Shown one piece after another: positions 1-57,489 of a stretch of 64,000 bases of DNA (within the stretch, counting starts at the first letter, position 1; each line of letters starts with the position of its first letter). The notes under the pieces were generated by a model. The model was not told where the DNA came from, did no database searches, and saw only the letters and a program-made list of their open reading frames with translations. The stretch covers positions 1,984,001 to 2,048,000 of the forward strand of contig NZ_JBEPOC010000001.1 of the NCBI RefSeq assembly GCF_040546585.1, written 5' to 3'. The position numbers and the translations under genes were made by a program. The DNA is from Marmoricola sp. OAE513 (GTDB taxonomy: Bacteria; Actinomycetota; Actinomycetes; Propionibacteriales; Nocardioidaceae).

Positions 1-940
1 CAACCCGCCGTTCGCGGCGCCCGCGAACCCGCCGGTCCTGCTGGCGCACATCGCTGCGAAGACCGAGCGGATCAAGCTCTCCACCTCGACCACGCTGATC
101 ACCACCAACGACCCGGTGCGGCTCGCGCAGGACTACGCCTACCTGCAGCACCTCACCGACGGCCGCATGGACCTCATGCTCGGCCGCGGCAACACCGGCC
201 CGGTCTACCCGTGGTTCGGCAAGGACATCCGCGAGGGCATCAACCTGGCGATCGAGAACTACGCGCTGCTGCACAAGCTGTGGCGCGAGGAGAACGTCGA
301 CTGGCAGGGCAGGTTCCGCACGCCGCTGCAGGCGTTCACCTCGACCCCGCGCCCGCTGGACGGTACCCCGCCGTTCGTCTGGCACGGTTCGATCCGCAGC
401 CCGGAGATCGCCGAGCAGGCGGCGTACTACGGCGACGGGTTCTTCTCCAACCACATCTTCTGGCCGGCCGAGCACACCGCCCGGATGATCGCGCTGTACC
501 GCTCCCGCTTCGAGCACTACGGCCACGGCAAGGCCGAGGACGCGATCGTGGGGCTCGGGGGCCAGGTGTACCTGGCACGCAACAGCCAGGACGCCGTCAA
601 GGAGTTCCGCCCGTACTTCGACAACGCCCCGGTCTACGGCCACGGCCCGTCACTGGAGGAGTTCACCGAGCAGACCCCGCTGACCGTCGGGTCCGTGGAG
701 CAGGCGGTGGAGAAGACGCTCGGGTTCAAGGAGTACGCCGGCAACTACAACCGGCAGCTGTTCCTGGTCGACCACGCCGGCCTGCCGCTGGACGCCGTCC
801 TGCGTCAGCTCGACCTGCTGGGCGAGGTCGTCGCCGAGCTCCGCAAGCACGAGTCGGCCCCGGTGGTCGACGCCGCCCCGGTCGCCGACGCCGCCCCGGT
901 CGTCGAGCTTGCCGAGACGCCCGAAGGGAGCCTCCAGTGA
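1..940 (+). CDS. LLM-class flavin-dependent monooxygenase, CE1758-like (5' end missing)
   Basis: Bacterial luciferase-like TIM-barrel oxidoreductase that would use reduced flavin to oxidise an unknown substrate. The frame is open from base 2 without a start, so the gene begins upstream; about 312 residues are seen and roughly 40-50 are missing at the N terminus. Family signatures are clear: TTLITTNDPVR, GRGNTGPVYPWFG, FVWHGSIRSPEIAEQAAYYG and the FDNAPVYGHGPSLEEF stretch. It overlaps the FMN reductase start by 4 nt (GTGA), as expected for a two-component oxygenase/reductase pair. The C-terminal 25 residues are an Ala/Val/Asp-rich tail with repeated APV(V/A)DA units, and the last part (VVELAET) is encoded by a dispersed palindromic repeat, so the tail is probably not part of the fold. 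Confidence 0.9.
   Translation, partial: NPPFAAPANPPVLLAHIAAKTERIKLSTSTTLITTNDPVRLAQDYAYLQHLTDGRMDLMLGRGNTGPVYPWFGKDIREGINLAIENYALLHKLWREENVDWQGRFRTPLQAFTSTPRPLDGTPPFVWHGSIRSPEIAEQAAYYGDGFFSNHIFWPAEHTARMIALYRSRFEHYGHGKAEDAIVGLGGQVYLARNSQDAVKEFRPYFDNAPVYGHGPSLEEFTEQTPLTVGSVEQAVEKTLGFKEYAGNYNRQLFLVDHAGLPLDAVLRQLDLLGEVVAELRKHESAPVVDAAPVADAAPVVELAETPEGSLQ
898..919 (+). repeat. Dispersed palindromic repeat, family A (in CDS)
   Basis: GGTCGTCGAGCTTGCCGAGACG-type unit at the 3' end of the luciferase-like gene, read as VVELAET. The same unit occurs at several other places in the window, between and inside genes. Confidence 0.75.
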
Positions 941-1545
941 CCCGCCACCTCGTCGTCATCAGCGCCGGGCTGTCCGACCCGTCGAGCACCCGACTCCTGG
1001 CCGACCTCCTCGCCGCCGCGACGGTCGCGGCGTCGAAGGAGGAGGTCACGGTCGAGCACGTCGAGCTGCGCCCGCTCGCGCACGCCCTGACCGACCACCT
1101 CCTCACGGGTTTCGCGACCGGCGAGCTGGCGGCCGCGCAGAAGCTCGTGGTCGAGGCGGACGCGGTGATCGCCGTGACGCCGGTCTTCAGCGCGTCCTAC
1201 AGCGGACTGTTCAAGACGTTCTTCGACGTCCTCGAGACGGGCGCCCTGGACGGCACCCCGGTGCTCGTCGCCGCCACCGCCGGTACGCCGCGGCACAGCC
1301 TCGTGCTCGAGCACGCGCTGCGGCCGTTGTTCAGCTACCTGCACGCGGTCGTCGTCCCGACCGCGGTGTTCGCCGCGACCGACGACTTCGCCGGGGACGG
1401 CGCGGGCCTGCGAGGCCGGGTCGACCGCGCCGCGGCCGAGCTCGCAGCGCTCGTGGCCGCACGCCCGCACGCGAGCAGGCTCGACCAGTTCGACCGCGAC
1501 CTGGCCGCGATGGGCGACTTCGAGAGCCTGCTGAACGGTCAGTAG
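937..1545 (+). CDS. NADPH-dependent FMN reductase (CE1759-like flavodoxin fold)
   Basis: 202-residue flavodoxin-like reductase that would supply reduced FMN to the luciferase-like monooxygenase encoded just upstream. The start is GTG at 937, chosen because it overlaps the upstream stop (GTGA) and gives the normal N terminus with the first beta strand and flavin phosphate loop (HLVVISAGLSDPSSTRLLADLL). Also visible are the AVIAVTPVFSASYSGLFKTFFD segment, typical of NADPH-dependent FMN reductases, and the VLVAATAGTPRHSL strand-loop. Upstream in-frame codons to 211 are shadows of the monooxygenase gene. The monooxygenase/reductase pairing is a known arrangement in actinobacteria; the substrate is unknown. 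Confidence 0.88.
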   Translation: MTRHLVVISAGLSDPSSTRLLADLLAAATVAASKEEVTVEHVELRPLAHALTDHLLTGFATGELAAAQKLVVEADAVIAVTPVFSASYSGLFKTFFDVLETGALDGTPVLVAATAGTPRHSLVLEHALRPLFSYLHAVVVPTAVFAATDDFAGDGAGLRGRVDRAAAELAALVAARPHASRLDQFDRDLAAMGDFESLLNGQ

Positions 1546-1548
1546 ATT
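1543..1548 (+). promoter_or_regulatory. -10 box TAGATT of a leaderless gene
   Basis: TAGATT lies 6 nt before the ATG at 1555, overlapping the stop codon of the FMN reductase gene (TAG). Transcription would start at or next to the start codon, which explains the absence of a ribosome binding site. Confidence 0.55.
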
Positions 1549-1554
1549 GGCGCC

Positions 1555-1935
1555 ATGAGCATCATCAAGATCAACGCCATCACCGTTCCCGCCGACAGCG
1601 GCGACGAGCTCGCCCGCCGGTTCGCAGCGCGTGCCGGTGCGGTCGACGGGCAGGAGGGCTTCGAGGGCTTCGAGCTCCTCAAGCCGACCGACGAGCGCAC
1701 CCAGTGGTTGGTCGTCACGCGGTGGCGTGACGAGGAGTCGTTCCAGGCCTGGCTGACCTCGGCGGCCTTCGGCGAGGGTCACCGCGGTACGGCGGGCGCA
1801 GCCGGTGCGGGCCACGGGCACGGCGACGGTGCGGGCCACGGGCACGGTCACGGGCACGGCGACGGACAGGGTCCCGTCGGTGTCGCCAGCGAGCTGTGGT
1901 CCTACGAGGTCGCCGGCGGCTCGACCGGCGCCTGA
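1555..1935 (+). CDS. ABM-domain (heme-degrading monooxygenase-like) protein with His-rich insertion
   Basis: 126-residue protein with the dimeric alpha/beta-barrel antibiotic-biosynthesis monooxygenase fold: N-terminal IIKINAITVPADSGDELARRF, the GFEGFELLKP strand, and WLVVTRWRDEESFQAWLTS ahead of a conserved His. Relatives include heme-degrading MhuD/HmoA-type enzymes and small quinol monooxygenases. The odd part is a Gly/His/Ala/Asp-rich insertion of about 28 residues (roughly 80-108, nine histidines in GHGHG runs) placed before the last strand (ELWSYEV). The DNA for it is an internally repeated ggccacgggcacgg tract, so it probably arose by slippage. Metal or heme binding by this segment is an inference. 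The ATG start fits the leaderless promoter. Confidence 0.8.
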   Translation: MSIIKINAITVPADSGDELARRFAARAGAVDGQEGFEGFELLKPTDERTQWLVVTRWRDEESFQAWLTSAAFGEGHRGTAGAAGAGHGHGDGAGHGHGHGHGDGQGPVGVASELWSYEVAGGSTGA

Positions 1936-1965
1936 GCGCGCCCACGGCAGGAGCATGATGGAGGT

Positions 1966-2472
1966 ATGGCAAACCTCCAGCAGCCCCGTTCGCAGAAGCT
2001 CCTGAGCCTCGAGTTCCCGCAGTCGCTCGCGGTGTACGACGACTACGCCGCGGCGCAGAAGTCGGTCGACTTCCTGTCGGACAACCAGTTCCCGGTGCAG
2101 AACTGCATGATCGTCGGCACCGACCTCAAGCAGATCGAGCGCATCACCGGTCGGTTGACCAACGGTCGGGTCGCCGGCCTCGGTGCGATGTCCGGTCTGT
2201 GGCTCGGACTCTTCGTCGGGCTGATCCTTTCCTTCTTCGGCGACAACGACAACGTGTTCGCGATGCTCGCCTCGACGGCACTCATGGGTGCGGCGTTCGG
2301 CACGATCTGGTCGCTGCTCGGTTACCTCGCGACGCGGGGTCAGCGCGACTTCTCCTCGGTGACCGCGGTGGTCGCGACCCGGTACGAGGTGCTGGTCGAG
2401 CACAAGCTGCTGGGCCAGGCGCAGGAGCTGCTCGCCAAGCTCCCGGGGGCCACGCCCAACCCGTTCGCCTAG
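1966..2472 (+). CDS. Small membrane protein, general stress protein 17M/YflT-like
   Basis: 168-residue protein. The N-terminal half (residues about 15-60) has the YDDYAAAQKSVDFLSDNQFPVQNCMIVGTDL pattern of the general-stress-protein 17M/YflT domain, in which an alpha/beta segment precedes a Gly-rich hydrophobic region. Two hydrophobic stretches (about residues 68-90 and 97-120, the first containing GLWLGLFVGLILSFF) look membrane-embedded and are followed by a cytoplasmic tail ending in KLPGATPNPFA. A good Shine-Dalgarno (GGAGG) precedes the ATG. Many high-GC actinobacteria carry this family as single genes; the molecular role is unknown. Confidence 0.75.
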   Translation: MANLQQPRSQKLLSLEFPQSLAVYDDYAAAQKSVDFLSDNQFPVQNCMIVGTDLKQIERITGRLTNGRVAGLGAMSGLWLGLFVGLILSFFGDNDNVFAMLASTALMGAAFGTIWSLLGYLATRGQRDFSSVTAVVATRYEVLVEHKLLGQAQELLAKLPGATPNPFA

Positions 2473-2489
2473 CCCGGTCGTCCTAGCCC

Positions 2490-2566
2490 GGTCGTCGAGC
2501 TTGCCGAGACGTGGTGAGGTCTGCGCAGTCGGTGCGACCGGTGGCATCTCGGCAGGCTCGACGACC
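2490..2566. repeat. Family A repeat, inverted pair
   Basis: Units at 2490-2511 (forward) and 2545-2566 (reverse: CATCTCGGCAGGCTCG...) face each other across 33 nt in the gap before recC. The pair could fold into a long hairpin and may act as terminator for the gene ending at 2472. Confidence 0.7.
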
Positions 2567-2606
2567 GGGGCCGTACGTGTCGCCCCCTCCCACTAGGTTG
2601 AACCCG

Positions 2607-2678
2607 TGATCCTCGCTTCGCTCGTCATCGTGCTGTCGCCCACTCGGCCTCGAGCAAGCTCGGGCGCTCGTTAGGCTC
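2607..2678 (+). repeat. Dispersed repeat, family B, copy 1
   Basis: A ~72-nt stretch starting TGATCCTCGCT.CGCTCGTCA and containing CCTCGAGCAAGCTCGGGCG. A second copy lies at 47390-47460. This copy ends in the TAGGCT box that precedes the recC GTG. Confidence 0.65.
2672..2677 (+). promoter_or_regulatory. -10 box TAGGCT of recC (leaderless)
   Basis: TAGGCT ends 6 nt before the GTG at 2684. It supports the GTG as start and indicates a leaderless recCBD transcript. The box is the last part of a family B repeat. Confidence 0.5.
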
Positions 2679-2683
2679 CGCAC

Positions 2684-11189: not shown

Positions 11190-11190
11190 G

Positions 11191-12111: not shown

Positions 12112-12132
12112 TACCGACGAGTAGATCCCGCC

Positions 12133-12138
12133 TAGGAT
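12133..12138 (+). promoter_or_regulatory. -10 box TAGGAT of the acyl-CoA dehydrogenase (leaderless)
   Basis: TAGGAT ends 6 nt before the ATG at 12145 in the 33-nt divergent gap, matching the leaderless pattern seen at other genes here. Confidence 0.55.
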
Positions 12139-12144
12139 GAGCCC

Positions 12145-13290: not shown

Positions 13291-13313
13291 TCGAGCACCT
13301 GCGCAACTCTTCT

Positions 13314-16600: not shown

Positions 16601-18899
16601 GGCACCACCGGTGTGGTGCTGTTCAACGACCTGTCCGCGAAGAACGTGACCCAGATCCCCGACGGTGAGGTGAAGGCGACCACCCCGGGCTCCGGCACCA
16701 CGACGTACGTCGGTGGCTCCTTCGACACGGTCGGTGCGCCGACCGGCGGTTCGGGCCTGATCTCCGACAGTGGCACCGGATCGAACGTGAGCCTGGCCTC
16801 GGCCACGGCGGGTGCAGCCAACGGTGGCGTCCTGGCCACCGTGTCGGACGGCGCGGGCGGGTACTTCCTCGGTGGGTCGTTCACCCAGGTCAAGGGGGTC
16901 CAGTGCCCGTCGCTGGCGCACATCTCCTCCGACGGTTCGGTGGACCAGAACTACTGCTACAGCGGCCTGACCGGCACCGTGCGCGCCCTCACCCGGGCGT
17001 CCGGCGCGACGAGCAAGGTCCTCGCAGTGGGCGGTGACTTCAGCTACGGCGGTCACAGCAACCTGATGTTCATCGATCCGGCGAACACGGCCAACCCGGT
17101 CTACCTCGCCGGTGGAGACCCGAACGGCGTCGTGAAGTCGCTCAGCGTGAACGCGTCGAGCACCGTGTACTTCGGCGGTCAGTTCAGTCAGGCCGGCGGC
17201 ACCCAGGCGGCGCTGCTGGGTTCGGCCACGCTGACCTTCAACGGTCCGCAGCTGGCCTCGGCGCCCCGGACCAACTGGAGTGCCGGCGTCTGCATCGGGG
17301 TGCCGTCCGGCACCTCGGCCTGTGCCGACCCGAACGCCACGGTGAACACGGTGGCCTGGCTCTCCTCCGGCTTCGTCGCCGTGGGTGGCCGCTTCGACCG
17401 CAACTTCCGGGTCGTGAACAACGCCAGTCCGACGAACACGGCGACCCGGAACAACGCGCTCCTGGTCGGCGAGTCCGGTGCGTCCCCGACGCTGCTCGGC
17501 TGGGCGCCGAACATCGCCGGTGGCGCGCAGACGGTCAACGCGATCGCCCCGGGAACCGGGAGCGGCATCTCCAACATCTCGATCTACATCGGTGGTGACT
17601 TCACCAGCGTGAACGGGGTGGCGACCAAGAACCTGGCCGAGGTGGCCTGCACGGTTCTGGGTGGCAACACGAGCGCCGGCAACAACAACAACTCCGGCCC
17701 GATGCAGACCTGGTTGCCGAACCCGAACGGTCCGGGTCACCAGCCTGAGCTGGTACGGCAACGCCACGTCCAGCACGCTGCTCGTCGGTGGTGGGTTCAC
17801 CACGATCAACACCGGCGCAGGTGGCGCGACGACCCTGGTCCGGCACCGCCTGGCCAAGATCAACATCGGTGCGCTGACCTCGGCCACGCTGCCGGCGGTC
17901 GACAGCAACTGGGACCCGAACGCCGGCCGCACGGTCCGGTCCGTGTCCCGTGACGCAGCCGGCAACGTGACCGTCGGCGGTGACTTCGTCGTCCTGGGTG
18001 GGAAGACCCGGAACAACCTGGCGGAGTTCGACCCGAACTCGGGCGTGACCAGCTGGAACCCGAGCGCCAACGACACCGTGCGGGCCCTGGCGTTCAACGG
18101 TGGCACCGTCTACGCCGGTGGTGACTTCACCAACGCCGGTGGTGCGGCTCGGAACCGGCTTGCTGCGATCGACGGCAGCACGGGCACCGCCACGTCGTGG
18201 AACCCCGGAGCGGACGCGTCGGTCAACGCCGTCGCGGCCGACGGGTCGAACGTCTACGTGGGCGGGACCTTCGCCAACGCGGGCGGCTCGGCGCGGGCCA
18301 GCCTGGCAGCGATCGACGCCACCTCCGGCAGCGCCACCTCGTGGAACCCGGGCACGGACGGTGCCGTCAAGGCACTGGCCGTCTCCGGAGGCAACGTCTA
18401 CGTCGGTGGCTCGTTCGCCCACGCAGGCGGAGCGACCCGGAACAACGCGGCAGCGATTGACCCCACCGGCAGCGCGACCGGGTTCGACCCGGACGCTGAC
18501 GGTGCGGTCAACGCGATCGCGGTCAACAGCGCCGGTACCTACCTCGGTGGCGCCTTCACCCACGTCGGCTCCGACGCCCGCGACCACGTCGCGATTGTCG
18601 ACTCCGCCACGGGTACGGCCGGTGCCTGGAACCCGGGTGTGGACGGCACGGTCAACGCCGTCTACCTGATCGGGAGCCAGGTGTTCGTCGGCGGTGACTT
18701 CGGCCACGCGGGCGGGGCGTCGCGGTCCAACCTGGCGGCGCTGGATGCCGGCAGCGACTCCGCGCTGAGCTTCAAGCCGGACCCGAACGGGACGGTCTAC
18801 GCGCTCAGCCGGACGAGCGGTGGCTCGATCGTGGTCGGTGGCAAGTTCGCCATCATCGCGGGTCAGGCAGCACCGGCGCTGGGCTTCTTCGGAGGCTGA
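13676..18899 (+). pseudogene. Giant secreted protein with Ig-like and delta-60 repeats, interrupted by a frameshift
   Basis: About 1740 residues if the two frames are joined. Signal peptide LAIFVGVLVGALGIASPALA. Residues ~30-680 are an extracellular region of unknown fold. Residues ~685-980 hold three Ig-like repeats, each with a WQ(R/L)C(N/D)AAG...C motif. From ~990 to the end are many delta-60/beta-propeller-like repeats of the form VYVGGxFxxAGGxxRxxxAAID and SWNPG, typical of very large exported proteins. No LPXTG or C-terminal membrane segment is visible, so it is probably secreted or held non-covalently. The start ATG 13676 follows GGGGG; upstream in-frame codons precede the signal peptide. 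The frame read from 13676 leaves the repeat pattern near 17735 and runs to 17953 as nonsense-like sequence, while the repeats continue in the next frame to 18899. Confidence 0.75.
17729..17745 (+). other. Frameshift point in the giant repeat protein
   Basis: The repeat protein reads ...LPNPNGPG in one frame up to about 17737 and VTSLSWYGN... one base later (from 17736). One base too many in the CCGGGTC stretch explains it. Either a sequence error at GGG, a true inactivating mutation, or much less likely a programmed +1 shift. Confidence 0.7.
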
Positions 18900-23397: not shown

Positions 23398-24033
23398 ATG
23401 TCCTACCTGCTCCGTGTCGAGCTCCCCGACGTCCCCGGTTCGCTGGGTCGTCTGGCGAGCGCGATCGGTGCGTCCGGGGCCAACATCGAAGCGATCGAGA
23501 TCGTCGGCAAGGACGACGGCGTCGCCATCGACGACGTCTTCATCACCCCCGACCACGGCGTGATGCCGGACAGCATCGTCTCTGCCTGTACTGCTCTCGA
23601 CGGCGTCCGCGTCCTCTGGATCTCCCGGTACGCCGCGGGCGGCAACCTGTTCCTCGATCTCGAGGCGGTCGAGTCGATGACCCAGGACCCGGCGACCGCC
23701 GTGGAGAAGCTCGTCGATGCCGTGCCCGAGGTGTTTCGCGTCGACTGGGGCATGCACCTGACCCGTGAGGGCGACAGCGGCGTGATCGTGCACGGCACGC
23801 CGTCCGCCCCCACCGTGGTCCCCGGCGGTGTGGTGTGGCCGGAGAACCTCGAGAAGGCCTCCAACATCGACGTTCCCGACGCGTGGTCCGACCTCGTCGT
23901 CGCAGCCTCTCCGGTCACCGCCGACGAGCTGGTCGTCGTGGGCCGTCGCGGCGGCCCAGAGTTCCTCGACTCCGAGATCGCAAGACTGGCTCACCTGGTC
24001 GCGATGGCGGGCAGCCTGCGCCGCAACGCCTAG
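23398..24033 (+). CDS. ACT-domain (amino-acid-binding regulatory) protein
   Basis: 211 residues. The N-terminal ~75 residues form an ACT fold: YLLRVELPDVPGSLGRLASAIGASGANIEAIEIV is the classical first strand-helix-strand with the Gly ligand turn. The rest (residues ~80-210) is a helical/beta region ending in DSEIARLAHLVAMAGSLRRNA that may be a GAF-like or second regulatory module. Proteins like this occur as single genes in actinobacteria and probably sense an amino acid; no catalytic domain is attached. Start ATG at 23398 agrees with the leaderless promoter. Confidence 0.75.
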   Translation: MSYLLRVELPDVPGSLGRLASAIGASGANIEAIEIVGKDDGVAIDDVFITPDHGVMPDSIVSACTALDGVRVLWISRYAAGGNLFLDLEAVESMTQDPATAVEKLVDAVPEVFRVDWGMHLTREGDSGVIVHGTPSAPTVVPGGVVWPENLEKASNIDVPDAWSDLVVAASPVTADELVVVGRRGGPEFLDSEIARLAHLVAMAGSLRRNA

Positions 24034-24070
24034 CAGGGTCGTCGAGCAGCCCCGGTCACCGAGCAGCCCC

Positions 24071-24092
24071 GGTCATCGAGCCTGCCGAGATG
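24071..24092 (+). repeat. Family A repeat, with degenerate partners upstream
   Basis: GGTCATCGAGCCTGCCGAGATG at 24071-24092, preceded by two shortened copies (from 24038 GGTCGTCGAGCAG and from 24054 GGTCACCGAGCAG). They fill the gap between the ACT and DDN-type genes. Confidence 0.65.
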
Positions 24093-24551: not shown

Positions 24552-24589
24552 ACCGGGTCAATGCCCTGACCCCTACCCAACATTCCCGA

Positions 24590-24808
24590 CCGGGCACAGA
24601 TGTCTCGCCCAGGTCCACCGAGGTGGCGCACATGTCCCGGGTCGCTTTTCGAGACCTGGGCATCTGCGCCCGCTCGCCGTACGGCGGCGGGACATCCCAG
24701 TCCTCTCGGCGGGTCTAGGTGGGACATCTGCGCCCGCTCGCCGTACGGCGGCGGGACATCCCGGCCCGCTCGGCGGGCCTGGGCGGGACATCTGTGCCCG
24801 CTCGGCGG
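24590..24808. repeat. Intergenic repeat array with a 64-bp tandem unit
   Basis: The gap between the DDN-type gene and menB (24552-24824) is filled with repeats. A unit beginning CATCTGCGCCCGCTCG starts at 24661 and 24725, and again in shortened form (CATCTGTGCCCGCTCG) at 24789, a period of 64 nt. Each full unit holds the palindrome CGCCGTACGGCG and GGCGGGACATCCC. An inverted relative (GGGCACAGATGTCTCG) is at 24594. No gene is supported in this stretch; open frames through it merely follow the period. Confidence 0.75.
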
Positions 24809-24812
24809 CCGA

Positions 24813-24818
24813 TAGCCT
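24813..24818 (+). promoter_or_regulatory. -10 box TAGCCT of menB (leaderless)
   Basis: TAGCCT ends 6 nt before the menB ATG at 24825, directly after the repeat array. Confidence 0.5.
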
Positions 24819-29731: not shown

Positions 29732-30322
29732 GTGCGCGCGGCCCTGGTGCTCGTGCTCGCCGTCGTCCTGACGGCGGCCGGGTGCGGCTCGACGGAGGAA
29801 CCGCAGAGCGCCGAGTCCGACGCTCCGAGGATCGACTTCCTCCCGGGCGCGCGCGTCGGCGAGCTCGCCGAGAAGCAGCTCGAGGCCGAGCACGCGGAGA
29901 TGGCGACCGGAGCCGTTGACTGCCCGGACCTGGAGTGGGAGGTGGACGCCTCGGTGCGTTGCGTGAAGACCTCCGAACTCAGCGACGGTCGTCGCGTCCG
30001 GGTGCCGGGGACGGTGACCGTCACCAGCACTGAGGGCTACGGCACGCTGCACGTCGAGCTGGATGACGCAATCGCCGAGTTCGGCGTCGACGGCCGACAC
30101 CTGGCCGACGACGTCACGACCTGGGTGTCCCGTCGTGTCCGCGGTGGGCCGGTGCTTGCGACCTGCTCCTACCTCGTCGGCAAGCCAGGAGCGTCCTCGG
30201 TCTGCAAGGTCGTGGTCGCGGGTGAGCACTGCCGGGTGCGGGTCTCGGTGACCGGCGTGGATGCTGGAGACTTCCGCACCCGCTACCGGATGGACTGGAA
30301 GGTCCGACCGAAGGCGGCGTAG
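29732..30322 (+). CDS. Lipoprotein with DUF4333-like repeats
   Basis: 196-residue exported lipoprotein. Signal peptide ALVLVLAVVLTAAGC with lipobox Cys. The body has two segments of the form ...CPDLEWEVDASVRCVKTSE and ...ATCSYLVGKPGASSVCKVVVAG, each with a Cys pair and alternating strands like DUF4333, a small domain common in actinobacterial lipoproteins. GTG start directly after the sirtuin stop (TGAGTG). The function is unknown; co-transcription with the sirtuin is likely by position only. Confidence 0.65.
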   Translation: MRAALVLVLAVVLTAAGCGSTEEPQSAESDAPRIDFLPGARVGELAEKQLEAEHAEMATGAVDCPDLEWEVDASVRCVKTSELSDGRRVRVPGTVTVTSTEGYGTLHVELDDAIAEFGVDGRHLADDVTTWVSRRVRGGPVLATCSYLVGKPGASSVCKVVVAGEHCRVRVSVTGVDAGDFRTRYRMDWKVRPKAA

Positions 30323-33917: not shown

Positions 33918-33969
33918 GGTCGTCGAGCCTGTCGAGAGTGGTGGCTCGGTCGTCGAGCCTGCCGAGACG
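33918..33969 (+). repeat. Family A repeats, direct pair
   Basis: Copies at 33918-33939 (GGTCGTCGAGCCTGTCG...) and 33948-33969 (GGTCGTCGAGCCTGCCG...), both forward, in the gap between the convergent tadA and HxlR genes. Confidence 0.7.
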
Positions 33970-40589: not shown

Positions 40590-40679
40590 GGTGACGTGTC
40601 CGAGCGGCCTAAGGAGAACGCCTCGAAAGCGTTTGTGGGTGCAAGCCCACCGAGGGTTCAAATCCCTCCGTCACCGCCA
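40590..40679 (+). tRNA. tRNA-Ser(CGA)
   Basis: 90 nt including the encoded CCA. Acceptor stem GGTGACG/CGTCACC, anticodon stem AACGC/GCGTT with loop CTCGAAA, giving anticodon CGA (reads UCG). The long class II variable arm (GTGGGTGCAAGCCCAC) and the T loop GTTCAAATC confirm tRNA-Ser. Confidence 0.97.
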
Positions 40680-44900: not shown

Positions 44901-44918
44901 CCGGCATCCCCTCCCGTT

Positions 44919-44957: not shown

Positions 44958-45051
44958 AGTGATTTCCTGGCGAGTGCCTGTGCGCTGGTCCTTGACGGCC
45001 ACGCGTTCCTCGGCAACGCTGCCACCACTCAGTGGCACGAACGGGGGACCC

Positions 45052-46340: not shown

Positions 46341-46354
46341 CCATTGACCAATGG
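46341..46354. promoter_or_regulatory. Palindrome CCATTG-AC-CAATGG, candidate operator
   Basis: Perfect 6-bp arms 25 nt upstream of the GTG of the hydrolase operon, directly after the previous stop codon. The spacing fits an operator overlapping a promoter. Confidence 0.5.
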
Positions 46355-46378
46355 CACAGTTGGTGGTGTCATCAGGGG

Positions 46379-47392: not shown

Positions 47393-47460
47393 TCCTCGCT
47401 ACGCTCGTCAACAGCGCTTCGCCTCCTCAGCCTCGAGCAAGCTCGGGCGTTCGGAGGCTC
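47390..47460 (+). repeat. Dispersed repeat, family B, copy 2
   Basis: About 71 nt resembling 2607-2678: TGATCCTCGCTACGCTCGTCA at the left, CCTCGAGCAAGCTCGGGCG and GGCTC at the right. It ends 5 nt before the GTG of the SDR gene and separates it from the hydrolase gene. Confidence 0.65.
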
Positions 47461-47465
47461 GCGCT

Positions 47466-48362
47466 GTGACGAAGATCAGCCGGAACGCCCGGGCAATCGT
47501 CACCGGAGCCGCCAGCGGCATCGGCCAGGCGTTCGCGGTCGAGCTCGGTCGGCGCGGCGGCCAGGTCGTCGTCAGCGACATCGACATGGTCGGTGCCCAG
47601 CGCACCGTCACCGCCATCGAGGACCAGGGCGGCACCGCGGTCGCCGTCCACTGCGACGTCTCGAAGCTGGACAGCGTCCAGGACCTCGCGGCCGAGGCCT
47701 GCCGCTGGTTCGAGGGCGTGCCCACGCTGGTGATCAACAACGCCGGCGTCGGAGCCGGCGGCAACGTCGTCGGGGACGCCCCCATCGAGGACTGGCACTG
47801 GACCCTCGACATCAACCTCTGGGGTCCCATCCACGGGTGCCACGTGTTCGCCCCGTTGCTGCGGCAACAGGCGTTGGACGGGCAGCGCGGCGGCATCATC
47901 AACGTCGCGTCAGCTGCGAGCTTCGGGGCCGCCCCACGGATGGCGGCGTACAACGTCAGCAAGGCAGGGGTGCTGTCGCTCAGCGAGACCTTGGCGGCGG
48001 AGCTGTCCGGGACCGGGGTGAACGTCACGGTGCTGTGCCCGACGTTCGTGAAGACCAACATCGTCACCTCCGGCCGCATCAACGCCAAGGCGTCCGAGGC
48101 GGCCAGCAAGCTGATGCAGTTCGGGATGTCGCCGGCCAAGGTCGCCCGGGTCTGCCTCGACACCCACGACCGCGGCGGGCTGTACGTGATGCCTCAGATC
48201 GACGCCAAGATCGGCTGGCAGATCAAGCGCACCCTGCCGCAGACCTACACCCGCGTCGCCGGCCTGCTCGAGCGCTTCGGCCCGATCAGCGACGACTCCC
48301 TGCCCGACACCGGCCCGGTCGTCGAGCTGGCCGAGACGCGCACCACCGAGAAGGAGCACTGA
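47466..48362 (+). CDS. Short-chain dehydrogenase/reductase (SDR)
   Basis: 298 residues. VTGAASGIGQAF near residue 12 is the NAD(P) Gly motif, LVINNAGVGAGGN the NNAG motif, SAASFGAAPRMAAYNVSKAG the catalytic Ser and Tyr-x-x-x-Lys (Tyr ~162). Classical SDR that oxidises or reduces an alcohol or ketone. The start GTG 47466 has no clear ribosome site and follows a family B repeat. The C-terminal 15 residues (PVVELAETRTTEKEH) are partly encoded by a family A palindromic repeat. Next gene starts 1 nt after the stop. Confidence 0.88.
   Translation: MTKISRNARAIVTGAASGIGQAFAVELGRRGGQVVVSDIDMVGAQRTVTAIEDQGGTAVAVHCDVSKLDSVQDLAAEACRWFEGVPTLVINNAGVGAGGNVVGDAPIEDWHWTLDINLWGPIHGCHVFAPLLRQQALDGQRGGIINVASAASFGAAPRMAAYNVSKAGVLSLSETLAAELSGTGVNVTVLCPTFVKTNIVTSGRINAKASEAASKLMQFGMSPAKVARVCLDTHDRGGLYVMPQIDAKIGWQIKRTLPQTYTRVAGLLERFGPISDDSLPDTGPVVELAETRTTEKEH
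48317..48338 (+). repeat. Family A repeat in the SDR C terminus
   Basis: GGTCGTCGAGCTGGCCGAGACG-type unit, read in frame as PVVELAETR. Confidence 0.7.
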
Positions 48363-48363
48363 C

Positions 48364-49332
48364 ATGGCCACCACCGTCCAGCCCGCGCTGAACATGGAAG
48401 ACATGCTGCAGAAGATCAAGGACAAGCAGTGGGCCCTCGCCGACATCGACTGGGAGGCACCGGGCGCGGAGACGATCAGCGACGAGTTCCGGCCCAAGCT
48501 GAAGGCGTTCATGGCTGACCTCTGCTGGATCGAGAACGTCGGTGCCCGGGGCTTCGCCGCAATGGCGAAGAAGGCTCCGAACCCGACCATCGCGGAGATC
48601 TACCGGTACTTCCACGCCGAGGAGCAGCGGCACGCGAACGCCGAGCTCGCCCTGCTCAAGCGCTGGGGCATGCTCGAGGACGGCGAGATCCCGGAGCCGA
48701 ACGTCAACATCCGGATGGCGATCGAGTGGCTCGACACGTACGCCGACGACATGCCGCTCTCGGTGCTCGGCACGGTGATCCCGATGCTCGAGGTGGCCCT
48801 CGACGGAGCGCTGCTGAAGTTCCTGCTCGAGGAGGTGCACGACCCGGTGTGCCACCAGGTCTTCGAGAAGATCAACAACGACGAGTCCCGGCACATCGCC
48901 GTCGACTTCGCCGTCCTCGACATGATCGGGCACGCGACGGCACGCAAGCTGGCGATCGACTTCGTGTCAAACGTCGCGACGCCCGCGCTCATCATCGGCG
49001 CCCTGATGTACCTGCCGCTCCTCAACCGGATCCGCAACAACATCATGGACATGGGGCTGCAGCCCGAGAAGCTCTACCGCGCCATGGAGCGGTTCGAGAA
49101 GCTCGGCAACCGCGGCGAGTTCACGCACCGCGTTCCGCTGTTCCAGGTCATCCGCCAGCACGCGAAGATGGTGGTCAACCCCCAGCACCCGTACCACCTG
49201 CTGGCGAACTCGATGGTGACGCTGTCGGAGTACTACCCGAAGGCGCTGTTCCGCCCGATCCCGACCTGGTTCAAGGAGCTGACCTACGAGCCGGTGACGC
49301 GCACGGTGAAGAAGGGGATGAACGCCGCATGA
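48364..49332 (+). CDS. Ferritin-like diiron protein (oxygenase or reductase)
   Basis: 322 residues. Four helices carry a carboxylate-bridged diiron site: Glu57 (DLCWIENVG), Glu87-x-x-His90 (FHAEEQRHANAE), Glu143 (IPMLEVALDG) and Glu174-x-x-His177 (INNDESRHIAVDF). The spacing (E, ExxH, E, ExxH) fits AurF-like and other ferritin-fold oxygenases. The C-terminal ~120 residues are basic with a possible membrane-touching stretch (VATPALIIGALMYLPLLNRI). Coupled to the flavin-monooxygenase gene by overlap, so both probably act on one substrate. No clear ferredoxin reductase is in the operon. Substrate unknown. Confidence 0.8.
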   Translation: MATTVQPALNMEDMLQKIKDKQWALADIDWEAPGAETISDEFRPKLKAFMADLCWIENVGARGFAAMAKKAPNPTIAEIYRYFHAEEQRHANAELALLKRWGMLEDGEIPEPNVNIRMAIEWLDTYADDMPLSVLGTVIPMLEVALDGALLKFLLEEVHDPVCHQVFEKINNDESRHIAVDFAVLDMIGHATARKLAIDFVSNVATPALIIGALMYLPLLNRIRNNIMDMGLQPEKLYRAMERFEKLGNRGEFTHRVPLFQVIRQHAKMVVNPQHPYHLLANSMVTLSEYYPKALFRPIPTWFKELTYEPVTRTVKKGMNAA

Positions 49333-50918
49333 GCACGACCACGGTTTCGACGTCTCGACAGGCTCGACGACCGGTCGTCGAGCCTGTCGAGACGCGACGA
49401 CCCAAGCGCAGTCCCCACGTCCACACCACCGTCATCATCGGTGCGGGCTTCATCGGCCTCGGTACGGCGATCAAGCTGCGCGAGGCGGGCGTCGACGACC
49501 TCGTCATCCTCGAACGCGCGGACCGTGTCGGCGGCACCTGGCGGGACGCGACGTACCCGGGCGCGGCCTGTGACATCCCCTCGCAGCTCTACTCGTTCTC
49601 GTTCGCGAAGAACCCCGGCTGGTCGCGCGCGTACTCGCCGAGCGCGGAGATCCTCGCGCACATCGAGGAGCTCGCCGATCGGTTCGACCTGGTCAAGGAC
49701 ATCCGCTTCAACACCGAGGTGACCAAGCTGGTCTTCGACAAGGCCGAGGCGCGCTGGGAGGTCAGCTGCGGGCGCAAGAAGCTCTACGCCCGCACGGTCG
49801 TGGTCGCCTCGGGCCCGCTCTCGGACGCGAGCCTGCCGAAGATCGCCGGCATCGAGGACTACCAGGGCACCAAGGTGCTCAGCGCGCGGTGGGACCACGA
49901 CTACGACTTCGCGGGCAAGAACATCGCAGTGATCGGCACCGGCGCGAGCGCGGTCCAGATCATCCCCGAGCTGGTGAAGGTGGCCGGCTCGGTGAAGGTC
50001 TTCCAGCGCACACCCGGTTGGGTGATGCCGCGCGTGGACCTGGAGACCCCGGAGCTCGCGAAGGCGGTCTTCGAGAAGCTTCCGCTGGTCCAGCAGGTCA
50101 CGCGCAGCGCGCTCTTCTTCGCCCACGAAGCGGCCGCGACCGGGCTGGTGTGGGACACCCCGGTCACCACGCTGATCCAGCAGGCCGGCAGGCTGCACCT
50201 CCGGATGACCGTGAAGGACAGGTGGCTCCGTCGCCAGTTGACGCCGGACTTCCGGGCCGGCTGCAAGCGGATGCTGATGTCCAGCGACTACTACCCAGCG
50301 CTGCAGCAGGACAACTGCAAGCTGATCACCTGGCCGATCGCCAAGATCACGCCGCGTGGGATCCAGACGGCCGACGCGCTGCAGCACGAGGTCGACGCGA
50401 TCGTCTTCGCGACCGGGTACGACGTGCACCTCGAGGGGCCGCCGTACCCGATCTTCGGGCTGGACGGCCAGTCGCTCCAGGAGGAGTGGTCCGGGCACCC
50501 GGAGGCGTACAAGAGCGCGAGCGCGCACGGGTACCCGAACCTGTTCTTCACCTGCGGCCCGAACTCGGGGCCGGGACACAACTCGCTGCTCGTCTACGCC
50601 CAAGGGCAGATCGAGTACGCCGTGGCCGGCATCCGGGCGGTCGTGGAGCAGGACCTGCGCTGGATCGACGTGAAGAAGGACGTCCAGGACGGCTACAACG
50701 TCTCGATGCAGAAGCGGCTGCGCAGCACGACCTGGATGTCCGGCTGCACGAGCTGGTACCTGACCAAGGACGGCTTCAACGCCTCGATGTATCCAGGGTT
50801 CGCGAGCCAGTATCTTCGTCAGATGCAGGACTTCCGGATCCGCGACTACGACGTCGCCTCGAACGCTGCCCGGAGGCTGTGGAACATCCCCGCGGACCGC
50901 ACGCTGGCGGCCGTCTAG
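49329..50918 (+). CDS. Flavin-containing (Baeyer-Villiger-like) monooxygenase
   Basis: 529 residues. VIIGAGFIGLGTAIKLREAGVDDLVILERADRVGGTW (FAD Rossmann), AACDIPSQLYSFSFAKN, a second Rossmann KNIAVIGTGASAVQIIP near 200 and VFATGYDVHL mark the class B family. The fingerprint FxGxxxHxxxW is weakened: YQGTKVLSARW lacks the His, so Baeyer-Villiger activity is uncertain. The ATG overlaps the diiron stop (ATGA). A perfect 44-bp palindrome of repeat family A is inside codons 8-22 and encodes STSRQARRPVVEPVETR, an extension before the first strand with no homologue function expected. Stop overlaps the MerR start. Confidence 0.85.
   Translation: MSTTTVSTSRQARRPVVEPVETRRPKRSPHVHTTVIIGAGFIGLGTAIKLREAGVDDLVILERADRVGGTWRDATYPGAACDIPSQLYSFSFAKNPGWSRAYSPSAEILAHIEELADRFDLVKDIRFNTEVTKLVFDKAEARWEVSCGRKKLYARTVVVASGPLSDASLPKIAGIEDYQGTKVLSARWDHDYDFAGKNIAVIGTGASAVQIIPELVKVAGSVKVFQRTPGWVMPRVDLETPELAKAVFEKLPLVQQVTRSALFFAHEAAATGLVWDTPVTTLIQQAGRLHLRMTVKDRWLRRQLTPDFRAGCKRMLMSSDYYPALQQDNCKLITWPIAKITPRGIQTADALQHEVDAIVFATGYDVHLEGPPYPIFGLDGQSLQEEWSGHPEAYKSASAHGYPNLFFTCGPNSGPGHNSLLVYAQGQIEYAVAGIRAVVEQDLRWIDVKKDVQDGYNVSMQKRLRSTTWMSGCTSWYLTKDGFNASMYPGFASQYLRQMQDFRIRDYDVASNAARRLWNIPADRTLAAV
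49351..49394. repeat. 44-bp perfect palindrome, family A, inside the FMO gene
   Basis: Left arm CGTCTCGACAGGCTCGACGA.. (49351-49372) is the exact complement of 49373-49394, no loop. Two head-to-head family A units read in frame near the N terminus of the flavin monooxygenase. Confidence 0.85.
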
Positions 50919-51811: not shown

Positions 51812-51812
51812 G

Positions 51813-54800: not shown

Positions 54801-55133
54801 CGCGCGAGCGCTGCGCACCAGGTCGGCGAAGGCGACGGCGTCGACGGCGGTGCCGGGTCGGAGCCGGTAGCCGACCTCGGAGGTCTCGACCTGGTCCTCG
54901 CCGAGGCTGCGTCGCAACCGGGCCACGACGGTGTGGACGACGGCGGGCGCGAGCTCGGCTGCATCGTCTCCCCAGACGCCTTCGAGAAGCACCGAGGCGT
55001 CGACCGCGTTCGGGTGCCGCAGGAGCAGCATCGCCAGGAGGTCCCGTGGCCGCTGCCCGCGCGGGGTCAGCACCGCAGTCCCGTCGGTCACGCGGAGCGC
55101 GCCGAGTACGCCGTACTCCACCCGGCCATGCAA
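51813..55133 (-). CDS. Large SARP/BTAD regulator with AAA ATPase and TPR-like repeats
   Basis: 1106 residues. An OmpR-type winged helix (MHGRVEYGVLGALRVTDGTAVLTPRGQRPRDLLAMLLLRHPNAVDASVLLEGVWGDD..) is at 1-100, a BTAD helical domain at 100-250. An AAA/STAND-type ATPase follows: Walker A VITGPPGIGKTALWES near 315, DDVQWMD near 440 and a LFIHELAQ segment. The last ~450 residues are TPR-like helices. This is the MalT/AfsR-like architecture of actinobacterial activators with ATP- and ligand-dependent assembly. It is convergent with the MerR gene and divergent from the MoxR/VWA operon; targets unknown. Confidence 0.85.
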   Translation of the reverse strand: MHGRVEYGVLGALRVTDGTAVLTPRGQRPRDLLAMLLLRHPNAVDASVLLEGVWGDDAAELAPAVVHTVVARLRRSLGEDQVETSEVGYRLRPGTAVDAVAFADLVRSARALEPAQASESIEVLRTALALWRGDRAFDDVSDHLVTAERQRLDALRATAVESLAESLLTLPDPTGWVEANERAEALIAVDPLRERPYELVMLSAYRAGRQADALSTYTRLRTALRDELGIDPGPGAVDLQRRILEQDPALGGEVRRVWTEPATAPERGLTGAATAGADVPLLFGRDDEVAALTEFVATGHGALVITGPPGIGKTALWESGRAQAPRDQVVQARPGEEEVRYSFSVLADLLDGVDLDRLTELPERQREALSGALVRTDGTSEPDMHAIALGLAAALDELAREAPLLVAVDDVQWMDAESAEALTFASRRVDRNRVRFLLARRDGHDRTALEQAFPAAVRRDVVVAPLDADATAQLLRSLEVQAPARVVRLVHEQSGGNALFIHELAQVLRERGLPEKGQPLGVPTDVEELLGLQVDEVPSDERTAALAVALEKNLTEDVLSTLTSRETVAATVRRRLLVVDSTTGRVRFRHPLIAALARDRSTPAQRRSLHRWLADQVTNPDSRARHLGLGHDQPDEDRAAELAHAAGQALSRRAFETAVELTRLALEQTPSDSPDRPQRIVNHAQALAVAGWTQHLTDFLLPKIDELPVGPRGHAWLMLTSGVVETLDRVDELASLALRDSGEDMVLRAQALSLRASYAAAARVTDLEEAVRWGEEARRLDPSATAGVAWVRAVTGAAIDLDEPDDSEVSALRTATASGISSARAMQHSWRGELAQAREILVREINGADREGRGLDTSELQLHLVEVHVRAGDLTTAEAMLGLWGEVNENVHESADNERMRALIAALRGDPEAAERLAEVALVEADRLSVRWARLEALRARGLGAQFAGRLDDAARDLGAVWSWCEDEGVADPGTFPVVGDLVSALVSLDRVTEAEAVLARLATLSVDQQHPWGTATTTRCQALVGRAAGELDSAEASALLRVAAEEYSRLGMVGDHARTLLELADCLRVSGELEQRTEALVAAADVFESSGATGWAERTRALLAG

Positions 55134-55213
55134 CCACGCACCCGGTGGGACCAGCGAACGAATAGGTGACCCGCGCCACGGACGGGACGGCGACCGCAGG
55201 GCATGATGAGCCG

Positions 55214-56080
55214 GTGACTTGGTTCGACTCCGCGGCGGATGCCGAGAAGCTGCTCGCTGCTGCGGGCTACCTGGCCGACCCGGCGACGGCGACGACGACC
55301 TACCTGGCGGGAGCGCTCGAGAAGCCGCTGCTGGTGGAGGGGCCGGCCGGGGTCGGCAAGACCGAGCTCGCGAAGGCGATCGCCAAGGCGACGGGCTCCG
55401 AGCTGATCCGGCTGCAGTGCTACGAGGGTCTCGACGAGGCCCGCGCGCTGTACGAGTGGAACTACAAGAAGCAGCTGCTGCGCATCCAGGCCGCCAACGG
55501 CGACCAGAGCTGGTCCGAGACGCACGACGACATCTTCGCCGAGGAGTTCCTGCTCTCTCGGCCGCTGCTGACCGCGATCCGCAAGGAGACCTCGACGGTC
55601 CTGCTCATCGACGAGGTCGACAAGACCGACGTCGAGGTCGAGGGACTGCTGCTCGAGGTGCTCAGCGACTTCCAGGTGACGATCCCCGAGCTCGGCACCA
55701 TCTCGGCCGTTCGTCGTCCGATGGTGCTGCTCACCTCGAACGCGACCCGCGAGCTGTCCGAGGCGGTCCGTCGCCGCTGTCTCTACCTGCACATCGACTA
55801 CCCGGACGCCGAGCGCGAGCACGCGATCCTCGTGGGCCAGGTCCCGGGCATCGAGGACAAGCTGGCTCGCCAGATCGTCGACACCGTCACCCGGCTGCGT
55901 GCGCTCGAGCTGCGCAAGGCGCCGTCGATCGCCGAGTCGGTCGACTGGGCGCGCACGCTCGTGGCCCTCGGCACCGGCACGCTCGACCCGGCCACCATCG
56001 ACGCCACGCTCGGCGTGGTGCTCAAGCACACCAGCGACATCGACCGGGCAGTCCGCGAGCTCAAGCTCCGCCTGGCCTGA
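55214..56080 (+). CDS. MoxR-family AAA+ ATPase
   Basis: 288 residues. LVEGPAGVGKTELAKAIAKAT is Walker A (residues ~42-50), LLIDEVDKTD Walker B near 132, PMVLLTSNATRELSEAVRRRCLYLHIDYP holds sensor 1 and the Arg finger of the MoxR group. MoxR ATPases act as chaperones for von Willebrand A partners. The GTG at 55214 is chosen as the start of the recognisable domain; GTG 55166 would add 16 residues and cannot be excluded. The next gene (VWA) begins 2 nt after the stop, so they form one unit. Confidence 0.85.
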   Translation: MTWFDSAADAEKLLAAAGYLADPATATTTYLAGALEKPLLVEGPAGVGKTELAKAIAKATGSELIRLQCYEGLDEARALYEWNYKKQLLRIQAANGDQSWSETHDDIFAEEFLLSRPLLTAIRKETSTVLLIDEVDKTDVEVEGLLLEVLSDFQVTIPELGTISAVRRPMVLLTSNATRELSEAVRRRCLYLHIDYPDAEREHAILVGQVPGIEDKLARQIVDTVTRLRALELRKAPSIAESVDWARTLVALGTGTLDPATIDATLGVVLKHTSDIDRAVRELKLRLA

Positions 56081-56082
56081 GC

Positions 56083-57489
56083 ATGGCGCTGCTCGACCGG
56101 CACATCGCGTTCCTGGAGGCTCTGCGCACGGCAGGTCTCCCGGTCTCGCTGTCCGAAGGCCTCGACGCCGCGGACGCCGTGTTGACCCTCGGCCTCGACG
56201 ACCGCGAGCTGGTCCGCGCCGCGTACGCCGCCACCCTGGTCAAGAAGCAGCCGCACCGAGCCGGCTTCGACCACGTCTTCGACCTCTACTTCCCGGCGCT
56301 GGTCGGTGACCCCACGCGGGTGACGGACGAGTCGGTCGTCGAGCTTGCCGAGACGCCGGAAGACATCTCGGCAAGCTCGATGACCGGAGCCGGCGACGGG
56401 CCCGCCGACCTCGCCGAGTTCCGCGACGCCCTGGTCAACGCCCTCGGCATGGGCGACCCGGACGCGCTGCAGATGCTGGCCCGCGACGCCGTCCAGCGGT
56501 TCGGCCTGATCCGCGGGCGCGGCCCGGGCGAGCAGCGCTGGTCGTCGTACAACGTGATGAACCGGGTGTCTCCGTACGAGCTCGTCGAGCGCGTCCTCCA
56601 GGGACTCATGGCCGACCTCGACACCGACCCGACGATGCGTACGCTGGTGCAGGCGCAGGTCGACGCCTTCGAGGCGATGGTCGACGCGGAGGTACGCCGC
56701 CGCGCGGCCGAGGTCCGCGGCCCCGAGCACGTCGCCAAGTACACCGTGCGCAAGAGCATCGACCAGATCGACTTCACCTCCGCCCGCAAGAGCGACCTCG
56801 AGGCGATGCGCCGCGAGATCGGCCCGCTCGCGCGCCGACTGGCCACCCGGATCAACAAGCACAAGGCGTCGCGGCAACGTGGTCAGCTCGACTTCCGGCG
56901 TACCGTCCGGGCGTCGATCTCCTCGGGGGGCGTGCCGCTGGAGACCCACCACAAGCCGCGCCGACCCAGCCGCACCGACCTGGTCGTGCTCTGCGACGTC
57001 AGCGGGTCGGTGGCGAACTTCGCCAACTTCACCCTGATGCTGGTCTTCGCGCTGCGCGAGCAGTTCAACCGGGTGCGCGCGTTCACGTTCGTCGACGAGA
57101 TCCACGAGGTCAGCGACCGCTTCCACCCCGGCGCCGACCCGATCGAGACGATGGCGTCGCTGGCTGCGAGTGCGCAGTACGCCAGCCTGTGGGGCCGGAC
57201 GAACTACGGCCGCGCGTTCACCCGCTTCCAGGAGCTGCACGGCGACGCGCTCGGTCCGAAGACGAACCTGCTCATCCTCGGCGACGCCCGCTCGAACTAC
57301 TCCGACCTCGCGATGCCGGTGATCAAGGACATGGTCCACGAGGCCCGGAACACCTGGTGGCTCAACCCGGAGTCGCCCCGGCACTGGAACACCGGCGACT
57401 CCGCTGCGCAGGAGTACGCGAAGATCCTGAACATGGTCGAGTGCCGCAACCTCACGCAGCTGGGAGACTTCATCCACGACCTGGCCTGA
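56083..57489 (+). CDS. VWA-domain protein of the CoxE type
   Basis: 468 residues. The N-terminal half is helical (IAFLEALRTAGLPVSLSEGLDAADAV). The C-terminal VWA domain starts with VVLCDVSGSVANFANF (MIDAS DxSxS near 304), GRTNYGRAF supplies the Thr and LILGDARSNY the Asp, so a metal-ion-binding adhesion-type site is intact. Such CoxE-like proteins work with the MoxR ATPase encoded upstream in enzyme maturation. A family A repeat pair is inserted in frame at residues ~84-101 (SVVELAETPEDISASSM). Start ATG 56083, 2 nt after the MoxR stop. Confidence 0.85.
   Translation: MALLDRHIAFLEALRTAGLPVSLSEGLDAADAVLTLGLDDRELVRAAYAATLVKKQPHRAGFDHVFDLYFPALVGDPTRVTDESVVELAETPEDISASSMTGAGDGPADLAEFRDALVNALGMGDPDALQMLARDAVQRFGLIRGRGPGEQRWSSYNVMNRVSPYELVERVLQGLMADLDTDPTMRTLVQAQVDAFEAMVDAEVRRRAAEVRGPEHVAKYTVRKSIDQIDFTSARKSDLEAMRREIGPLARRLATRINKHKASRQRGQLDFRRTVRASISSGGVPLETHHKPRRPSRTDLVVLCDVSGSVANFANFTLMLVFALREQFNRVRAFTFVDEIHEVSDRFHPGADPIETMASLAASAQYASLWGRTNYGRAFTRFQELHGDALGPKTNLLILGDARSNYSDLAMPVIKDMVHEARNTWWLNPESPRHWNTGDSAAQEYAKILNMVECRNLTQLGDFIHDLA
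56334..56385. repeat. Family A inverted pair inside the VWA gene
   Basis: GGTCGTCGAGCTTGCCGAGACG at 56334-56355 faces CATCTCGGCAAGCTCGATGACC at 56364-56385 across 8 nt. The pair keeps the reading frame and encodes about 18 extra residues in the VWA protein. Confidence 0.75.

What the first reader, a model, noticed from the sequence alone, without database searches (positions are those of the whole stretch)
898..56385. Family A palindromic repeat sits both between genes and in frame inside four genes
A ~22-nt unit (GGTCGTCGAGC..GCCGAGACG) appears at 898, 2490, 2545, 24071, 33918, 33948, 48317, 49351 (double) and 56334/56364. Copies at the luciferase-like and SDR C termini, the FMO N terminus and the middle of the VWA gene keep the reading frame and encode VVELAET or its mirror STSRQARR. 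This resembles the way Rickettsia palindromic elements enter proteins. The unit is often arranged head to head, so it can form hairpins in RNA or cruciforms in DNA.
Basis: partly seen in the sequence, partly recalled or inferred. Interest (0 to 1): 0.75.

Follow-up and report, generated by a model that had tools for sequence, protein, structure and literature searches.

The report
Hairpin DNA repeat inserted into proteins
A short hairpin-forming DNA repeat is scattered through this bacterium's genome, mostly just behind genes but also in frame inside some proteins, where it spells linker-like peptides; relatives often lack it at the same places, and the enzyme known to move similar repeats elsewhere was not found.

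Summary
The unit occurs at all listed coordinates (12 window matches, 0.09 expected) and 121 times exactly in the 3.89-Mb genome (reversed control 0). It is a REP-like hairpin: arm positions covary (5 with 21, 4 with 22) around a core GAGCYTGYCGA. Of 161 units read, 110 lie outside genes, 98 of these facing a gene's 3' end. Of 48 wholly inside genes, 37 use one frame per orientation, spelling PVVE(L/P)AET or VSASSTTG, though no frame of the unit holds a stop. Orthologues often lack it: 18 of 23 at one Mfd site, 5 of 7 at the FMO N terminus, 3 of 7 at the SDR C terminus. So these are gains, as with Rickettsia palindromic elements. The proposed REP transposase is missing: no Y1_Tnp in the own genome; 2 of 120 family genomes have one, both without units. 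Units also grow by tandem copying of flank plus 5' half. The same core inside other complementary arms occurs in many phyla. Nearest published kind: CGTC-tagged REPs, but several defining features are not met. New variant of a known kind; the dispersal mechanism stays open.

The parts
898..919 (+). unit in frame at the C terminus of a luciferase-like monooxygenase (gene 116-940), reads PVVELAET
   Evidence: Pfam PF00296; tail absent in G012 (one relative only)
2473..2489 (+). truncated 5'-half copy just behind the stop codon of gene 1966-2472
   Evidence: read; listed among half units
2490..2511 (+). intergenic unit, left end of a head-to-head pair
2545..2566 (-). intergenic unit, right end of the head-to-head pair
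24037..24070 (+). truncated half-unit copies behind the stop codon of gene 23398-24033
   Evidence: read
24071..24092 (+). intergenic unit of the A-T arm type (GGTCATC..GATG)
33918..33939 (+). intergenic unit 3 nt behind a stop codon, first of a direct pair
33948..33969 (+). intergenic unit, second of the direct pair
48317..48338 (+). unit in frame at the C terminus of an SDR (gene 47466-48362), reads PVVELAET
   Evidence: absent in G012, G019, G021
49351..49372 (-). unit in frame at the N terminus of an FMO-like protein (gene 49329-50918), reads STSRQARR; left half of a 44-nt perfect palindrome
   Evidence: absent in 5 of 7 relatives read (own included in the 7)
49373..49394 (+). unit in frame at the FMO N terminus, reads PVVEPVET; right half of the palindrome
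56334..56355 (+). unit in frame in the linker of a VWA_CoxE protein (gene 56083-57489), reads SVVELAET
   Evidence: linker without it in G004, G017
56364..56385 (-). reverse unit in the same linker, reads ISASSMTG; head-to-head with 56334

Best explanation
It is a non-autonomous, REP-like interspersed hairpin. An arm (GGT-CRTC), a core GA-GCYTG-YC with a bulged GA, and the matching arm GAYG make a small hairpin; two units in inverted order make a strong one. SHOWN: high copy number, paired arms, head-to-head dimers with two different ends more often than chance, enrichment behind stop codons, gains at permissive protein linkers and termini, and a frame bias in genes. SHOWN AS A PATTERN, PROCESS INFERRED: local growth by tandem duplication of the flank plus the 5' half of the hairpin ending near the loop, most simply by polymerase stalling and slippage at the hairpin, or repair after its cleavage. 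INFERRED: new sites are seeded by copying in trans through a factor that is not a detectable Y1 transposase, or by template switching at hairpins. The copies that persist are mostly tolerable ones: behind genes, where they may also act as hairpins at mRNA 3' ends, or in frame in linkers. Selection on the protein keeps the frames that read PVVE(L/P)AET or VSASSTTG, so the repeat acts as a source of linker peptides.
For: 121 exact copies, control 0. Positions 5/21: G-C 144, A-T 23, other 15 of 182 copies. Head-to-head pairs: 13 of 21 join the two arm types, 4.2 expected. 46 convergent, 52 co-directional, 11 divergent of 161; random placement expects 1.6, 6.8, 3.5; median 24 nt from a stop. In-gene frames by gene: sense 1/3/18, antisense 5/2/12. 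Upstream half units 43 of 161 against 8 downstream; spacer repeats flank at 156 of 210 positions, shuffled mean 97. Gains against orthologues. No Y1_Tnp.
Against: No active movement was seen. Net gains at the Mfd site are 15 nt (own) and 18 nt (G007), not 22, so it is not a clean insertion of one unit. No target-site duplication was found, but relatives are only about 79-82% identical in DNA. Some linkers carry unit-like sequence in several species, so part of it may be old and decaying rather than new. A single unit folds weakly (-2.7 to -8.8 kcal/mol), and RNAfold prefers a slightly different pairing than the covariation supports. A divergent or non-Y1 transposase would not have been seen.
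Confidence: 0.65

Rival explanations
1. A classic REP/REPIN system moved in trans by a REP-associated tyrosine transposase (RAYT) that has been lost or missed.
For: Hairpin units, inverted dimers, intergenic bias and species-specific variants resemble REPINs (PMC3116915, passages).
Against: No Y1_Tnp in own, 0 of 28, 2 of 120 family genomes and those two without units; 18 of 40 cross-phylum genomes with the core lack it, including the two richest. Only 3 of 12 fetched Y1 loci have a core copy anywhere in them. Singles and direct pairs outnumber inverted doublets.
Confidence: 0.1
2. The units are selected RNA or DNA signals (bidirectional terminators, mRNA 3'-end stabilisers, or a protein-binding site) that arise and are kept for that function; in-gene copies are side effects.
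For: 46 of 161 units lie between convergent genes (1.6 expected); median 24 nt behind a stop; first unit behind a stop points along the gene in 53 of 80 (p 0.005); in G012 another hairpin repeat sits behind the same stop codons.
Against: 48 units lie wholly inside genes; copy number runs from 137 to 0 within the genus; intergenic crowding is also what harmless insertion gives; the orientation bias is mild.
Confidence: 0.2
3. Ordinary coding sequence or codon-usage coincidence in a GC-rich genome.
For: GTC, GAG and GCC codons are common; some linkers are of low complexity anyway, and one window match (29854) is probably chance.
Against: 0.09 expected against 12; reversed control 0 against 121; 110 of 161 outside genes; covarying arms; orthologues lack it.
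Confidence: 0.02

Closest known systems
CGTC-tagged REP superfamily (Di Nocera et al. 2013, PMC3733652; read: abstract, part 1 of the text, sections 6, 15, 16, and part 1 of the discussion)
   Same: Short hairpin with a 5-nt loop, present in several phyla, behind genes and in frame in genes, no associated transposase gene.
   Different: Here no unpaired CGTC tag, no A-T start of an 8-9 bp stem, no CCA tail; direct pairs outnumber head-to-head ones. The words actinobacteria and Nocardioides do not occur in its main text. Its consensus figures could not be read.
GTAG REPs / REPINs moved by RAYTs (PMC3116915, passages; PMC3733652)
   Same: Interspersed hairpins, inverted doublets, tandem clusters, species-specific variants.
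   Different: No GTAG tag, no Y1 transposase in the own genome, most clusters are single units (58 of 94).
Rickettsia palindromic elements (PMC10969869, three passages; PMC3733652)
   Same: In-frame gain inside unrelated proteins, at least partly at sites that tolerate it.
   Different: RPEs are described as about 150 bp with a conserved encoded peptide (the short RPE-4/-6 are counted as CGTC REPs); here 22 nt, two linker-like peptides depending on orientation.
MITEs (PMC10969869, passages)
   Same: Small, non-coding, non-autonomous, palindromic.
   Different: Much shorter; no parent transposon or target-site duplication found.

Membership tests
CGTC-tagged REP superfamily | unpaired CGTC (or TGTC/CCTC) at one end | tested here: not met
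   the CGTC of this unit is a paired arm (covariation 5/21, 4/22); the unpaired 5' end is CCC-GGT
CGTC-tagged REP superfamily | 8-9 bp stem beginning with complementary A-T residues | tested here: not met
   paired arm of 4 plus inner 2 bp, beginning C-G
CGTC-tagged REP superfamily | loop of 4-5 nt | tested here: met
   loop GCYTG, 5 nt, under the covariation-supported pairing
CGTC-tagged REP superfamily | CCA-like unpaired tail | tested here: not met
   3' flank most often begins T/C G G (tallies)
CGTC-tagged REP superfamily | head-to-head dimers predominant | tested here: not met
   21 head-to-head, 6 tail-to-tail, 39 direct of 66 close pairs
CGTC-tagged REP superfamily | not associated with transposase genes | tested here: met
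   for Y1_Tnp only; other transposase classes not tested
GTAG REP / REPIN | GTAG tag | tested here: not met
   no GTAG in the consensus unit or its conserved flank
GTAG REP / REPIN | RAYT (Y1_Tnp) in the genome | tested here: not met
GTAG REP / REPIN | inverted doublet is the main unit | tested here: not met
   58 of 94 clusters hold one unit; 21 head-to-head pairs
Rickettsia palindromic element | in-frame presence in unrelated protein genes, absent from orthologues | tested here: met
   48 units in 34 gene calls
Rickettsia palindromic element | about 150-bp element with a conserved ORF | tested here: not met
   22-nt unit
MITE | terminal inverted repeats with target-site duplication | tested here: inconclusive
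   no duplication seen at the sites aligned, but relatives are only about 79-82% identical
MITE | parent transposon in the genome | not tested
   only Y1_Tnp was searched

The most novel reading that the evidence does not exclude
The unit is the actinobacterial branch of a cross-phylum hairpin superfamily defined by the core GAGCYTGTCGA inside freely varying but complementary arms. It spreads without a transposase: copies multiply by hairpin-driven slippage and template switching, and in coding regions the process repeatedly writes flexible linkers (GSTTG or PVVE repeats) into the same permissive sites of housekeeping enzymes in different species.
Probability: 0.3. Interest if true: 0.82.

Novelty: new variant of a known kind. 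Interest (0 to 1): 0.6.

Why it matters
What moves REPs that have no RAYT is left open in PMC3733652. This case offers a complete genome, a genus with copy numbers from 137 to 0, covarying arms, two-ended dimers and half-unit duplications that point to hairpin-driven copying. It also shows a concrete route by which a non-coding repeat becomes protein linker sequence, with an Mfd site and a carboxyltransferase linker comparable across a genus. The cross-phylum core makes the question testable in many organisms.

Tried and rejected
Y1 transposase as the mover: no support. Only PF01797 was searched; other transposase classes were not. Rfam on the whole window at gathering score: only a tRNA at 40590-40676. 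Literal-sequence literature searches: none; one search gave 14 papers, 13 listed, none of whose titles concerns bacterial repeats (listing only). Topic searches brought REP/MITE papers but none describing this unit, judged from listings; most subscription papers are not held, so this is weak evidence of absence. Replication-strand bias: + 35 / - 23 in 1.95-3.0 Mb, + 31 / - 25 in 1.0-1.95 Mb; GC skew was too weak to place origin and terminus, no claim made. Match 29854 was dropped as chance. My first pairing model (outer GGTC/GACC, note) was dropped in favour of the one the covariation supports.

Rows not usable or thin: L034 failed the VWA alignment and L032 is partial; the G005 Mfd fragment was not read; the SDR-ferritin-FMO cluster matched in only 7 of 24 genus genomes; the luciferase tail was compared with G012 alone. 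Own-genome statistics rest on 61 stretches, window included, 735,377 of 3,890,914 bases. Most were chosen around the 100 listed of 121 exact copies; nine 20-kb stretches (L113-L121) chosen without regard to copies hold 5 units. Gene calls are my own codon-usage calls.
Full report
What is there. The window is G000:C1:1984001-2048000 of a one-contig, 3.89-Mb genome, 70% GC. I infer an actinobacterium near Nocardioidaceae from gene content and recall; no call named it. The unit occurs at every coordinate given (12 matches, 0.09 expected; one of the 12, at 29854, I take as chance). Genome-wide there are 121 exact copies of GGTCGTCGAGCNNGYCGAGAC and none of the reversed control. In 735 kb of own sequence there are 182 copies within 3 mismatches and 161 within 2.

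Anatomy. Positions 5 and 21 are G-C in 144, A-T in 23 and other in 15 of 182 copies; with 27 A and 27 T, about 4 A-T pairs are expected if independent (my arithmetic). Positions 4 and 22 change together from C-G to G-C in 5 of 5 such copies. So arms CRTC and GAYG pair around GA-GCYTG-YC, leaving GA as a bulge. RNAfold gives weak single hairpins (-2.7 to -8.8 kcal/mol) and for the own unit prefers a slightly different pairing; the inverted pairs at 2490, 49351 and 56334 give -55, -40 and -42. C precedes the unit at -1 in 152, -2 in 136 and -3 in 111 of 161 copies. Of 66 close pairs 39 are direct, 21 head-to-head and 6 tail-to-tail. Of the 21, 13 join a G-C-type and an A-T-type unit, 4.2 expected (p 3e-5): a dimer with two different ends.

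Half units. At 43 of 161 units a truncated 5'-half copy lies within 30 nt upstream on the same strand, against 8 of 161 downstream and a background of 3.5% per 30-mer. Half and full unit share the arm variant in 38 of 43 (some rows are in tandem arrays and are not independent). Where flank-half-spacer-full can be read, the spacer repeats the flank: 156 of 210 positions at 28 sites, shuffled mean 97, largest 112 in 1000. Other species with other arms show the same: the Mfd linker of G008 holds one unit plus two 18-nt half units, that of G020 a CCCTGAGCCTGCCGAAGGG-type unit plus about six half units (by eye). I read this as local tandem duplication stopping near the hairpin loop; slippage or hairpin repair as cause is inference.

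Where it sits. By my codon-usage gene calls (coding fraction 0.90), 110 of 161 units lie outside genes: 46 convergent, 52 co-directional, 11 divergent, 1 at a stretch edge; random placement expects 1.6, 6.8 and 3.5 for the first three. For the 98 convergent or co-directional units the median distance to the nearest stop codon is 24 nt, 46 of 98 within 20 nt. 53 of 80 first units behind a stop point along the gene (p 0.005); upstream of starts it is 18 of 31.

In genes. 48 units lie wholly inside 34 gene calls, 3 more overlap a gene end. No frame of the unit has a stop, yet by gene the sense units use frames 0/1/2 in 1/3/18 and the antisense units in 5/2/12. The preferred sense frame reads PVVE(L/P)AET, the preferred antisense frame VSASSTTG; half units extend these to PVVEAPVVE or GSTTG repeats. 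By eye, without a family search, the proteins include an Mfd, a NirB, an acyl-CoA carboxylase beta subunit, a CheA, an E2 acyltransferase, an FbiC, a methylmalonyl-CoA mutase and an Lhr-type helicase. The four window genes were identified with Pfam.

Orthologues. SDR C terminus: unit or remnant in G000, G017, G016 and G004, none in G012, G021, G019 (7 read). FMO N terminus: G000 (44-nt palindrome) and G016 (one copy), none in the other 5 of 7. VWA linker: variable in all 20 aligned genomes; the unit in G000, a GGTTGAGCCTGTCGAAACC version in G019, a remnant in G016, perhaps one in G008; shorter and without it in G004 and G017; G012 unclear. Luciferase: the G012 protein ends earlier. Mfd site 1: 18 of 23 genomes have 51-54 nt between the anchors; own 69 and G007 72 with clear units, G001 72 and G016 69 without an intact one, G020 186 with other-arm repeats. 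The G007 copy is that genome's only match. Carboxyltransferase linker: unit-like sequence in own, G016, G021, G001 and G014 of 22 read, and other hairpin-like repeats in G012, G006, G011 and some others (by eye). These look like recurrent landing sites. Against a simple insertion model: net gains at Mfd are 15 and 18 nt, not 22, and no target-site duplication was found.

Relatives and mover. GGTSGTCGAGCNNGYCGAGAC occurs in 22 of 58 genomes, own included (own 137 with 1 control match, G015 79, G004 45, G033 36, many 0). GGTNGAGCYTGYCGANACC occurs in 62 of 120 family genomes with no control match in any row. Y1_Tnp: none in own, 0 of 28, 2 of 120. The two, G026 and G032, have no unit. The draws agree in the handles shown, but 98 rows are not listed.

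Cross-phylum. In the genomes of 40 of those 80 loci, which I picked and which each have a hit, the bare core exceeds its reversed control in 39 of 40 (for example 607 against 41, 174 against 3, 70 against 0) and not in G167 (29 against 33). In 63 core copies other than the query pattern, from 40 loci, arm positions 1-4 are complementary in 56, 56, 53 and 49 of 63; shuffled 47, 35, 26 and 20 (94 copies of the query pattern left out). Y1_Tnp is present in 22 of these 40 genomes and absent in 18, the two richest among them; 3 of 12 fetched Y1 loci hold a core copy. Common descent with the own unit is not shown; the GGTTGAGCCTGTCGAAACC version at the orthologous VWA site of G019 is the best bridge.

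Known kinds. CGTC-tagged REPs (PMC3733652) lack a transposase and enter genes, but tag, stem and tail features were tested and not met. REPINs (PMC3116915) are tied to RAYTs. Rickettsia elements (PMC10969869) match in behaviour. I file this as a REP-like variant, not as a member of those families.

Noticed in passing
window 24586-24817: Another cluster of inverted repeats (GGGACATCTGCGCCCGCTCG type), partly tandem, between genes.
   Followed up: no
window 59713-59890: A second unrelated inverted-repeat cluster (CGCCGACCCGGCA..ATGTGCAGGT type), 60-nt arms 80% complementary, between genes.
   Followed up: no
L046-L049 (G012): Eight copies in 80 kb of a longer hairpin, GGTTGAGGTGCGAGCG..CCTCGAAACC, which shares the outer arms and the bulged GA; copies sit behind the same stop codons as the own units at 2490 and 24071, and one in the carboxyltransferase linker.
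   Followed up: partly
L083, own gene 1561516-1562538: N terminus made of six tandem units (PVVEPAET repeats) ahead of a hydrophobic C-terminal half: a repeat-built protein region.
   Followed up: partly
L277-L297, carboxyltransferase linker: Different species seem to hold different hairpin or tandem repeats in the same linker (G006/G011 CGTCATACG type, G005, G013 others) (by eye).
   Followed up: partly
G141 (genome of L123, Microbacterium mangrovi): In the places listed, head-to-head core pairs mostly join a CTTG-loop and a CCTG-loop copy (by eye about 11 of 12), a two-ended dimer like the own one.
   Followed up: no
window 17962-18745: Five coding repeats of about 141-144 nt spacing, 63-73% identical, in one gene.
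   Followed up: no
window 40590-40676: A tRNA gene, the only Rfam match in the window at gathering score.
   Followed up: no
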